This document shows positions 1,174 to 19,369 of a stretch of 34,451 nt of DNA, one piece after another. The DNA comes from Bacteroidales bacterium (GTDB lineage Bacteria; Bacteroidota; Bacteroidia; Bacteroidales; F082), in assembly GCA_015489465.1 (NCBI GenBank), contig WFZS01000143.1, positions 1-34,451 of the forward strand, read 5' to 3'. The position numbers and the translations under genes were made by a program. Numbering within the stretch: position 1 is the stretch's first letter; every line of letters begins with the position of its first letter. Under the pieces are notes generated by a model. It searched no databases, was not told where the DNA came from, and saw only the letters and a list, made by a program, of their open reading frames with translations.

Positions 1174-1203
1174 TTGGTAATTAGAAAATTATTTTTACCT
1201 TTG
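1174..1203 (+). promoter_or_regulatory. Bacteroidota-type promoter for the structured RNA
   Basis: TACCTTTG at 1196-1203 matches the Bacteroidota -7 consensus TAnnTTTG exactly. TTGG at 1174-1177 lies 18 nt upstream, close to where the -33 TTTG element is expected. Transcription would begin near 1210, at the edge of the first hairpin of the following folded RNA, about 250 nt before rpsL. Confidence 0.65.
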
Positions 1204-1209
1204 CAGCCC

Positions 1210-1372
1210 GTTTCAGGATAGTAGATGGAAAACCCTGAAACAGTTATAATTAAAGGAACCTGATAAGGTAAAACGCTATAGGTTTCTTGCGCGGCAAACA
1301 GGAGAGAGCTGCGTTGTTTTATCTGAAACAACACCAAAATCTCCTCCCTTATCAAGCCTTCCTTTAATTTAT
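1210..1372 (+). ncRNA. Candidate structured RNA of about 160 nt upstream of rpsL (6S-like or Bacteroidales-1-like fold)
   Basis: Hand folding gives a consistent set of helices. A 5' hairpin pairs 1210-1217 with 1234-1241 (GTTTCAGG/CCTGAAAC). An 11-bp closing stem pairs 1248-1258 with 1359-1369. It stacks on an 8-bp stem, 1261-1268 with 1347-1354. Inside are a CGCGGC/GCTGCG hairpin (1290-1295 with 1308-1313) and a 3'-side hairpin GTTGTTT/AAACAAC (1313-1319 with 1326-1332), which share base 1313 and so could compete. A long closed rod with an open central region and a small 3'-side hairpin resembles 6S RNA. A Bacteroidales motif called Bacteroidales-1 is also described as promoter-bounded RNA. 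The alternative is a long cis-acting leader of the str operon. Protein coding is unlikely: no good open frame with a start is seen. No U-rich terminator is obvious, so the 3' end is uncertain. Identity with a named family is not proven. Confidence 0.5.
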
Positions 1373-1405
1373 AACAATAAAAAGAGGTTAATTTAAAATA
1401 TTTTA

Positions 1406-1413
1406 TACTTTTG
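1406..1413 (+). promoter_or_regulatory. Promoter -7 element for the ribosomal protein operon
   Basis: TACTTTTG at 1406-1413 matches TAnnTTTG. No clear TTTG stands at the -33 position; the region is simply AT-rich. Transcription would begin near 1420, giving a 5' leader of about 40 nt before the rpsL ATG. No second convincing promoter of this type is seen in the gaps between rpsL and rplQ. Confidence 0.65.
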
Positions 1414-1460: not shown

Positions 1461-1838
1461 ATGCCGACAATACAACAGTTAGTAAGAAAAGGACGTAAAA
1501 AGTTAGTTGAAAAGAGCAAGTCTCCTGCTCTTGACGCATGTCCGCAACGTCGCGGGGTTTGTGTTAGGGTTTATACTACAACACCTAAAAAACCTAACTC
1601 GGCAATGAGAAAAGTTGCCAGAGTACGTTTGACAAACGGTAAAGAGGTTAATGCATATATCCCGGGTGAAGGTCACAATTTACAGGAACACTCCATAGTT
1701 ATGATTAGAGGAGGTCGTGTGAAGGACTTGCCCGGTGTTCGTTATCATATTATTCGTGGAGCTCTCGATACTTCCGGTGTGGAAGGTCGTACACAGCGCA
1801 GGTCCAAATACGGTACAAAACGTCCAAAGAAAAAGTAA
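1461..1838 (+). CDS. rpsL: 30S ribosomal protein S12
   Basis: This is S12 of the decoding centre, 125 aa, the usual length. I chose ATG 1461 because it gives the family N-terminus [12 protein letters not shown]; an upstream in-frame GTG at 1431 would add ten non-conserved residues. PKKPNSA (residues 42-48) and [13 protein letters not shown] (84-96) are the two decoding loops. Lys43 and Lys88, where streptomycin-resistance substitutions arise in other bacteria, are wild type, and Asp89, the residue methylthiolated in E. coli, is present. It is the first protein gene of the merged ribosomal operon, with the rpsG start 23 nt downstream. Confidence 0.98.
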
Positions 1839-17123: not shown

Positions 17124-17726
17124 ATGGCAAGATATATTGGCCCCAAATCAAAAATAGCACGTAAGTTCGGCGAACCGATTTTCGGACCGGATAAATATTT
17201 GGAAAAGAAGAACTATCCTCCCGGACAACACGGGGTGATGCGTAAAAGAAGAAAACAATCCGAATACGGAATGCAGCTTGCTGAAAAGCAAAAAGCAAAA
17301 TATACATACGGTATATTGGAGCGTCAATTCCGTAATATTTTCAAAAAAGCAACTCACAGAAAAGGTATTACCGGGGAAAATTTGCTTCAACTTATAGAAG
17401 CCCGTTTGGATAATGTTGTTTTTCGTTTGGGTATAGCTCCCACCAGAGCTGCAGCTCGTCAATTGGTTTCACACCGTCACATTACGGTTAACGGCGAAAT
17501 CGTTAACATTCCTTCTTATTCTGTTAGAGAAGGTGATATTGTCGGAGTACGTGAAAAATCAAAAAGTTTGGAAGTTATTACCGATTCATTGGCATCAAGA
17601 AAATCATATTCATGGTTGGAATGGGACGATGAAAAGATGCAAGGTAAATTTCTGAACTATCCCGCTCGTGAGGAAATTCCTGAAAATATTAAGGAACATC
17701 TCATAGTTGAGCTTTACTCAAAGTAG
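17124..17726 (+). CDS. rpsD: 30S ribosomal protein S4
   Basis: S4 initiates 30S assembly and, in E. coli, represses the alpha operon. The 200-aa product begins [20 protein letters not shown] and has the N-terminal region without a zinc-binding cysteine cluster. The S4 RNA-binding domain spans about 90-155 ([34 protein letters not shown]). It is followed by rpoA after 40 nt. Confidence 0.98.
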
Positions 17727-17766
17727 TAATTAACTGAATTAATATTAAATACGCTAAATATAAACT

Positions 17767-18759
17767 ATGGCAATTTTAGCATTTCAGAAACCTGATAAGG
17801 TTATAATGAACGAAGCCGATGACTTCCACGGCGTTTTTGAATTTCGCCCGTTGGAACCCGGTTTTGGGATTACAATTGGTAATGCATTCAGGAGAGTGTT
17901 GCTTTCTTCACTCGAAGGATTTGCTATTACCTCTGTATTGATCGACGGCGTTGTTCACGAATTTTCCACCATCGAAGGCGTAGTTGAAGATGTAACGGAA
18001 ATAGTCCTCAATCTTAAAAAAATCCGTTTTAAACAACAGATTCAAGATGAGGAGATGGAAAAAGTGAACATCGTTATCGGAGATCAGGAAGAATTTAAAG
18101 CAGGTGATATCAACAAGTTCCTTTCGGTATTTCAAGTATTGAATCCCGATGAGGTTATTTGTCACATGGACCCTTCGGTAAAACTGAGTATGGAACTTAC
18201 CATTAAAAAGGGTAGAGGATATGTTCCTGCCGAAGAGAACAAGGAAGAAGATGCACCGATGGGTACAATAGCTATCGATTCTATTCATACACCTATCAAA
18301 AACGTAAAATATCACGTTGAAAATTACAGGGTAGAGCAAAAAACCGACTATGAAAAATTGGTTATTGAAATAGATACAGATGGTTCTATTCATCCAAAAG
18401 ATGCATTAAAAGAAGCAGCAAAGATTCTTACACACCACATCATGCTCTTTTCAGATGAAAAAATTACTTTGGAACAAGAGGAGAAATCTATTGGAGACGA
18501 GCTTGATGAAAATACACTCCATATTCGTCAGTTACTGAAAACCAAACTTGTGGATCTTGATCTTTCGGTTAGGGCTTTGAACTGTTTGAAAGCCGCCGAT
18601 ATCGAAAAACTCGGTGATTTGGTTGCTTACAAACGAAACGATTTGCTGAAGTTTAGAAATTTCGGTAAAAAATCATTGGCTGAGCTTGACGAATTGGTTA
18701 AGAGTAAAGGCCTTGAGTTTGGAATGAATACATCAAAATATAAATTAGATAAGGAATAG
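17767..18759 (+). CDS. rpoA: RNA polymerase alpha subunit
   Basis: This assembly subunit of RNA polymerase is 330 aa. The N-terminal dimerisation domain is seen in [20 protein letters not shown] and [18 protein letters not shown]. The C-terminal domain (about 250-322) has [18 protein letters not shown] and [20 protein letters not shown]. Arg269 corresponds to E. coli Arg265, the key UP-element contact, so the alpha-CTD should be able to bind upstream DNA. The gene is 4 nt before rplQ, tying transcription capacity to ribosome synthesis. Confidence 0.98.
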
Positions 18760-18763
18760 AGCG

Positions 18764-19369
18764 ATGAGACATAAGAAAAGTTTTAATCATTTGGGAAGAA
18801 CAAGTGCACACCGTAAAGCTATGCTTTCGAATATGGCTTCTTCCTTGATATTGCATAAACGTATTTTTACAACTCTTGCTAAAGCTAAAGCATTAAGAGG
18901 TTATGTGGAACCCTTGATTACCAGGGCTAAAGAAGATACAACTCATTCGAGAAGAATGGTTTTCAGATATCTTAAAGACAAATACGCCGTTACTGAACTT
19001 TTTAGAGAAGTTTCGGTTAAGGTTGGTGATCGTCCTGGTGGTTACACCAGAATAATAAAATTGGAAAACCGTCTTGGTGATAACGCCGAGATGGCTATGA
19101 TTGAACTTGTTGATTACAACGAAAATCTTCTTACGGAAAAAACTGCCAAAAAGACGAAGACACGTCGTCGTCGCGGCGGTAAAAAATCTTCAACTCAAGC
19201 AAAAGTTGAAAATGCCGAGGTTGCTAAAACCGAAGAGGTAAAAGAAGAATCGGTAGAAAAAAAGGTGAAGGAAGAAGTTAAGGATGCCAAAGAAGAGCAA
19301 GAGCAACCTGAAGCTAAAAAAGAAGAGGACAAAAAAGAGAATACCGAAGATAATAATGAGGAGAAGTAA
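18764..19369 (+). CDS. rplQ: 50S ribosomal protein L17 with charged C-terminal extension
   Basis: L17 lies near the tunnel exit region. Residues 1-122 are the normal L17 domain ([52 protein letters not shown]). Residues 129-141 form a very basic linker ([13 protein letters not shown]). Residues 142-201 are a low-complexity tail rich in Glu and Lys with no hydrophobic core. The bacterial core protein needs only about 120 residues; extended L17 tails are known in Bacteroidota but their role is not. It is the last gene of the operon, followed by a strong terminator. Confidence 0.97.

What the first reader, a model, noticed from the sequence alone, without database searches (positions are those of the whole stretch)
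1204..1372. Strongly folded, promoter-bounded RNA upstream of the ribosomal operon
Between two TAnnTTTG promoters there is no reading frame but a set of at least five helices, including an 11-bp closing stem and an adjacent 8-bp stem separated from their partners by about 80-90 nt. The shape (closing rod, open centre, terminal hairpin, small 3'-side hairpin) suggests a 6S-like regulator of RNA polymerase or a Bacteroidales-1-type RNA. If it is 6S, its placement directly before the operon that contains rpoA and the ribosomal proteins would be notable. A cis-acting rpsL leader is the alternative.
Basis: partly seen in the sequence, partly recalled or inferred. Interest (0 to 1): 0.62.

Follow-up and report, generated by a model that had tools for sequence, protein, structure and literature searches.

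The report
Conserved leader RNA before rpsL operon

Summary
Window 1204-1372 lies between two TAnnTTTG promoters (1196-1203, 1406-1413) and folds better than all 200 shuffles (z = -4.15). It is a real RNA family. An unbiased pattern scan of 84,980 genomes returned 119 stretches: 106 lie upstream of rpsL on the same strand, 9 are cut at a contig or locus edge, and 4 are unrelated or unexplained. Cross-species complementarity tests support the helices (P4 z about 10; exact own complement 82/110 against 188/1540 for other species' variants). A 7-bp pseudoknot stem pairs in 92-100% of sequences at its three variable positions. G-U asymmetry puts the RNA on the + strand. P1 precedes the RNA in 106/107 cases. 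A second promoter lies between RNA and ATG in 87/107; 20/107 lack it, so there the RNA must be the rpsL 5' leader. Nothing in Rfam 15 matches. The 6S and Bacteroidales-1 readings fail: the best 6S candidate of this genome lies on another contig. Best reading: a new pseudoknotted cis-acting leader of the str-S10-spc-alpha operon, probably sensing a ribosomal protein (S7 by precedent). The ligand and the effect on expression are inferred. It is confined to part of one order. rpsL leaders of unrelated structure are known in other phyla.

The parts
1174..1203 (+). Promoter P1 of the RNA (TTG 1174-1176, TACCTTTG 1196-1203), Bacteroidota type
   Evidence: Sequence; TAnnTTTG precedes the RNA core in 106/107 representative homologues (10.6 expected), median 57 nt before ACCTGA
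1210..1241 (+). 5' hairpin H1 (GTTTCAGG 1210-1217 / CCTGAAAC 1234-1241)
   Evidence: MFE; closing pair covaries G-C 17, A-U 5, G-U 1 in family homologues
1245..1373 (+). Conserved pseudoknotted RNA domain (model R1 hit 1245-1372)
   Evidence: R1 60.5 bits here; covariation 0.247 against 0.134 in shuffles
1245..1257 (+). P1 helix, 5' strand (TATAATTAAAGGA), pairs with 1360-1373
   Evidence: cross-species complementarity peak at offsets -10 to -6 before ACCTGA, z up to 4.4
1255..1261 (+). P2 pseudoknot stem, 5' strand (GGAACCT), pairs with 1280-1286 AGGTTTC
   Evidence: 98.8% of cells paired in the family; extension pairs 108/108, 101/108, 99/108 over the order, with A-U, G-U and G-C types
1262..1268 (+). 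P3, 5' strand (GATAAGG), pairs with 1347-1353 CCTTATC
   Evidence: Column 20-85 C-G 9, U-A 6, A-U 1; column 24-81 G-C 17, C-G 6; z = 3.3
1269..1274 (+). P4, 5' strand (TAAAAC), pairs with 1316-1321 GTTTTA
   Evidence: Own exact complement downstream in 82/110 against 188/1540 for other variants; z = 9.8
1280..1286 (+). P2 pseudoknot stem, 3' strand (AGGTTTC)
1289..1314 (+). P5 hairpin (GCGCGGC 1289-1295 / GCTGCGT 1308-1314)
   Evidence: 4 of 5 pairs with compensatory changes, 91.7% of cells paired
1316..1321 (+). P4, 3' strand (GTTTTA)
1322..1346 (+). Variable segment; a local hairpin (P6) in many relatives, no clear equivalent here
   Evidence: By eye in the alignments
1347..1353 (+). P3, 3' strand (CCTTATC)
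1360..1373 (+). P1 helix, 3' strand, C/U-rich (TCCTTTAATTTATA)
1406..1413 (+). Promoter P2 core (TACTTTTG) between the RNA and rpsL
   Evidence: Sequence; present in 87/107 homologues (9.3 expected), median 47 nt before ATG
1461..1838 (+). rpsL (S12), first gene of the str-S10-spc-alpha operon (rpsG 1862, fusA 2349, rpsJ 4485 ... rpoA 17767, rplQ 18764)
   Evidence: Pfam; downstream neighbour in all 30 family loci checked and 106 of 119 scan hits

Best explanation
The element is a structured 5' leader of the rpsL (str-S10-spc-alpha) operon, made from its own upstream promoter P1. SHOWN: the RNA is on the + strand; it has a 5' hairpin, a closing helix P1, nested helices P3, P4 and P5, and a conserved pseudoknot stem P2 whose 5' strand (GGAACCU) overlaps the end of closing helix P1, so long P2 and full P1 cannot both form; it is linked to rpsL and not to the gene upstream; distal promoter and RNA occur together. 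INFERRED: the leader senses an operon product, most plausibly ribosomal protein S7 (rpsG, known regulator of the str operon in E. coli) and less likely S12, L4 or another r-protein. Binding would shift the P1/P3/P4 fold against the long P2 hairpin and so lower output of P1 transcripts. As no intrinsic terminator is conserved behind the RNA, it often lies more than 100 nt from the start codon, and Bacteroidia ribosomes do not use Shine-Dalgarno pairing, the output is more likely premature (factor-dependent) termination or mRNA decay than blocking of the ribosome site. Promoter P2 would give an unregulated basal level.
For: Linkage: all 30 family loci checked lie upstream of rpsL, as do 106 of 119 stretches of an unbiased scan of 84,980 genomes, while the upstream neighbours form 31 clusters among 75 loci and lie on both strands. 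Structure. Cis: in 20/107 homologues no TAnnTTTG lies between RNA and ATG, so P1 is the only recognisable promoter and the RNA must be in the 5' UTR. No intrinsic terminator lies between RNA and rpsL in the window. Strand: 73 G-U against 22 A-C cells. Precedent: rpsL leaders in other phyla and S7 control in E. coli (PMC2965389); Bacteroidia ribosomes fail to recognise Shine-Dalgarno sequences (PMC9976891 abstract).
Against: 87/107 homologues have a second promoter after the RNA, so P2 transcripts escape any control by the leader; this is unusual for r-protein feedback. There is no sequence mimicry of rRNA (best PWM score 1.7 against a null best of 0.6 +/- 5.0). 85/116 sampled genomes of the order do without the RNA. 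No binding, transcript or expression data exist.
Confidence: 0.6

Rival explanations
1. A stable small RNA with its own promoter P1 that acts in trans (for instance on RNA polymerase or mRNAs) and merely sits before rpsL, which is read from P2.
For: It has its own promoter, is compact and closed by a helix, and 87/107 loci have a separate rpsL promoter. Some Bacteroides sRNAs come from 5' UTRs (PMC7366714).
Against: Near-exclusive linkage to rpsL across many families; no terminator behind it in the window and none at a conserved place elsewhere; 20/107 loci have no other recognisable rpsL promoter.
Confidence: 0.15
2. A processive antitermination or RNA-polymerase-modifying leader that equips P1 transcripts to cross the ~18-kb operon.
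For: It sits at the head of a very long operon (rpsL 1461 to rplQ 19369); a promoter-proximal element is coupled to one promoter; it has an intricate conserved fold; no terminator lies next to it.
Against: No direct evidence; most sampled families of the order manage without it.
Confidence: 0.12
3. A metabolite or ppGpp riboswitch controlling ribosome synthesis.
For: A pseudoknot with a highly conserved core (ACCUGAnAArnunARRC...AnAGGU), as in many riboswitches, and mutually exclusive helices.
Against: Found only before rpsL; no expression platform recognised; no Rfam riboswitch match.
Confidence: 0.1
4. 6S RNA or a Bacteroidales-1 RNA.
For: General shape of a long rod with a separate promoter.
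Against: No Rfam match even at E <= 10; a separate 6S-Flavo match in the same genome and in 39/60 family genomes.
Confidence: 0.01

Closest known systems
rpsL-leaders of Listeria, Xanthomonas, Pseudomonas, Rickettsia (PMC2965389) and the rpsL/fusA element of Pelagibacter (cited there)
   Same: Structured RNA upstream of rpsL at the head of the str operon; presumed r-protein feedback
   Different: Those in PMC2965389 are terminator/antiterminator attenuators; this one has no conserved terminator, has a pseudoknot core, lies between two promoters and is confined to Bacteroidales. No Rfam family matches it.
Ribosomal leaders L13-Bacteroidia and S4-Bacteroidia (PMC7247131)
   Same: cis-acting r-protein leaders in the same class
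   Different: Other operons (rplM; rpsD-rpoA-rplQ). In the passages searched the paper names no S12 or S7 leader from Bacteroidia, and the window has no gathering-level Rfam hit.
6S-Flavo RNA (RF01685)
   Same: Bacteroidota; a long rod-like RNA
   Different: No match here; the diverged 6S candidate of this genome is at G000:C209:6639-6778

Membership tests
6S RNA / 6S-Flavo (RF01685) | Match to the covariance model | tested here: not met
   No hit at E <= 10 in 1000-1500; separate locus hits instead
6S RNA / 6S-Flavo (RF01685) | Binds RNA polymerase and yields pRNA | not testable with these tools
   Needs RNA-seq or binding assays
Bacteroidales-1 (RF01693) | Match to the covariance model | tested here: not met
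   none
Ribosomal-protein leader (cis-acting) | Conserved position upstream of an r-protein operon, same strand | tested here: met
Ribosomal-protein leader (cis-acting) | Covarying RNA structure on the coding strand | tested here: met
Ribosomal-protein leader (cis-acting) | Contained in the mRNA 5' UTR | tested here: inconclusive
   Implied in 20/107 loci with no TAnnTTTG between RNA and ATG; 87/107 have a second promoter; no transcript data
Ribosomal-protein leader (cis-acting) | Mimicry of the rRNA binding site (common, not obligatory) | tested here: not met
   best rRNA window no better than shuffled rRNA; sequence only, structural mimicry not tested
Ribosomal-protein leader (cis-acting) | Binding of, and repression by, an operon-encoded r-protein | not testable with these tools
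   Needs EMSA and reporter assays
Published rpsL-leader attenuators (PMC2965389) | Terminator/antiterminator pair before rpsL | tested here: not met
   None between RNA and rpsL in the window; in homologues 17/110 terminator-like hits at scattered places, 3.3 expected

The most novel reading that the evidence does not exclude
A new mechanistic class: an RNA module coupled to one promoter that reprograms RNA polymerase (processive antitermination) or directly senses a growth signal, acting on P1 transcripts of the whole str-S10-spc-alpha operon and gained and lost together with P1.
Probability: 0.18. Interest if true: 0.8.

Novelty: new member of a known kind. Interest (0 to 1): 0.52.

Why it matters
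How Bacteroidota control ribosomal-protein synthesis without Shine-Dalgarno recognition is little known. This leader gives a compact conserved RNA at the head of the main ribosomal operon, whose presence and absence across families, two-promoter layout and covarying core make the question directly testable. It is also a candidate for a new Rfam family.

Tried and rejected
6S and Bacteroidales-1: rejected by Rfam scans and by the separate 6S-Flavo match. Minus-strand RNA: its MFE is lower (z = -6.5), but homologues show 73 G-U against 22 A-C cells on the + strand. rRNA mimicry: the core resembles E. coli 16S ACCUCAUAAAG (S7 region, recalled from memory), but the rRNA of a family member has no match better than shuffles. 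Intrinsic terminator: not conserved. Mobile repeat: rejected by the fixed position. First MAFFT plus RNAalifold on raw sequences found only the P2 stem and part of P5, because loops vary in length and the fold is pseudoknotted. A trimmed, hand-anchored alignment was needed; the cross-pairing tests do not depend on it. The exceptions of the pattern scan, L074, L084 and L111, lack rpsL and, by eye, the distal half of the motif; L158 was not examined further. The two copies in L118 flank an N run and are probably an assembly artefact. The CM search of whole genomes scored few candidates per genome, so its low rates are not prevalence; prevalence rests on rpsL-anchored regions (31/116).

Full report
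OBSERVATION. The stretch 1204-1372 folds to -46.8 kcal/mol against -31.8 +/- 3.6 for shuffles (z = -4.15, 0/200) and lies between TACCTTTG (1196-1203) and TACTTTTG (1406-1413). The gene upstream, a beta-barrel-like protein with a sub-threshold Pfam match, ends at 1020 and is closed by an intrinsic terminator at 1051-1078. No terminator follows the RNA before rpsL (ATG 1461). Downstream are S12, S7, EF-G, S10, L3, L4 and, further on, S4, RpoA and L17.

NOT 6S. Rfam 15 gives no match at gathering level in the whole window, no 6S or Bacteroidales-1 match at E <= 10 around the site, and nothing at E <= 0.05 in 20 homologous loci. A full-length 6S-Flavo match lies on another contig of the same genome (38.1 bits, E about 3e-4, below the family cut-off of 85 bits). 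39 of 60 family genomes carry one such match, with none in 14 control genomes. These are probably diverged 6S RNAs.

A CONSERVED FAMILY TIED TO rpsL. A DNA search finds the region in 35/61 relatives, and all 30 loci checked are upstream of rpsL. A covariance model R1 finds it in other families of the order, always before rpsL where checked. 106 are upstream of rpsL on the same strand, 9 are at a contig or locus edge, 3 (L074, L084, L111) are chance hits by my reading, and one (L158) is unexplained. Named records are nearly all Bacteroidales or Bacteroidetes MAGs (Lentimicrobium, Marinilabiliales, Draconibacterium and others); the few with other labels are either among the chance hits or carry a Bacteroidales-like rpsL (L100). 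Upstream neighbours fall into 31 clusters in 75 loci, on both strands. Among 116 genomes sampled across the order by their rpsL gene, 31 have the RNA. Among 395 genomes drawn from the phylum, nearly all from other orders, only the window's own genome matches the pattern.

STRUCTURE. In a gapless alignment of 24 trimmed family sequences, the model of P1, P3, P4, P5 plus pseudoknot P2 pairs 84.5% of cells (36-50% when slid by 1-3 columns), with covariation score 0.247 against 0.134 +/- 0.010 in shuffles. P3 shows C-G/U-A/A-U and G-C/C-G exchanges, P4 A-U/C-G, P5 four of five pairs. That alignment was anchored by hand, so I also used tests free of it. Over 110 representatives from the order, the exact complement of a sequence's own P4 5-mer occurs downstream in 82/110, against 188/1540 for other sequences' variants. 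In own-versus-other cross-pairing P4 has z = 9.8, P3 3.3, P1 2.3, and two control segments 0.8 and -0.2. A sliding 6-mer profile peaks just before ACCTGA (P1), at GANAAR (P3) and at NARRC (P4). P2 (GGAACCU with AGGUUUC) pairs in 108/108, 101/108 and 99/108 at its three variable positions, with A-U, G-U and G-C types. The 5' hairpin keeps its closing pair (G-C 17, A-U 5, G-U 1). G-U cells outnumber A-C cells 73 to 22, so the RNA is on the + strand, although the - strand has the lower single-sequence energy. The end of closing helix P1 and the P2 stem share the GGA nucleotides, so a choice between two folds is built in; that it is used is inference.

PROMOTERS. Over 107 representatives, TAnnTTTG lies before the RNA in 106 (10.6 expected), median 57 nt before ACCTGA. 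A second lies between RNA and ATG in 87 (9.3 expected), median 47 nt before ATG. Twenty have only the first, so there the RNA is bound to be in the rpsL 5' UTR. Genomes without the RNA keep the proximal promoter (59/85) but mostly lack a distal one (23/85, against 30/31 with the RNA). P1 and RNA thus behave as one module.

MECHANISM. No intrinsic terminator is conserved (17/110, scattered), and the RNA often lies more than 100 nt from the start codon. Bacteroidia ribosomes fail to recognise Shine-Dalgarno sequences (PMC9976891 abstract). I therefore favour a leader that senses an r-protein (S7 by precedent in E. coli; PMC2965389) and acts on P1 transcripts by factor-dependent termination or decay. 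The ligand and this step are inferred. The proximal promoter P2, which escapes the leader, is the main difficulty and keeps an sRNA, an antitermination element and a riboswitch alive. rRNA mimicry by sequence was tested and not found.

NOVELTY. rpsL leaders of other phyla are attenuators of unrelated structure, and the published list of 20 r-leaders has L13 and S4 from Bacteroidia but, in the passages searched, names no S12 or S7 leader. The text search covered open-licence PubMed Central papers only, so an earlier description elsewhere is possible. I rate it a new member of the kind 'r-protein-operon leader RNA', with a new structure.

Noticed in passing
L250, L253, L258, L261, L268, L270 (rpsL upstream regions): Several genomes of the order that lack this RNA have another leader of about 140 nt before rpsL with a shared pattern (TATCTTTGC, GTTTTTGACG, YTGATTATG, GTTTTTGACGTC): a possible second, unrelated rpsL leader.
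   Followed up: partly
G000:C209:6639-6778 (-), L001 1501-1640: Diverged 6S-Flavo candidate of this genome, below the Rfam cut-off but with one full-length match in 39/60 family genomes; Rfam's model probably misses the 6S of this family.
   Followed up: partly
window 17124-19369: No S4-Bacteroidia leader (or any Rfam family) reaches the gathering score before rpsD-rpoA-rplQ in this genome.
   Followed up: no
L118 5149-5331: Two copies of the core 155 bases apart beside a run of N; probably an assembly duplicate.
   Followed up: no
window 1300-1305 with 1339-1344: In this genome the P5 loop (AGGAGA) can pair with UCUCCU in the variable segment, and a hairpin GUUGUUUU...AAACAAC competes with P4; both appear limited to the window's genus.
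   Followed up: no
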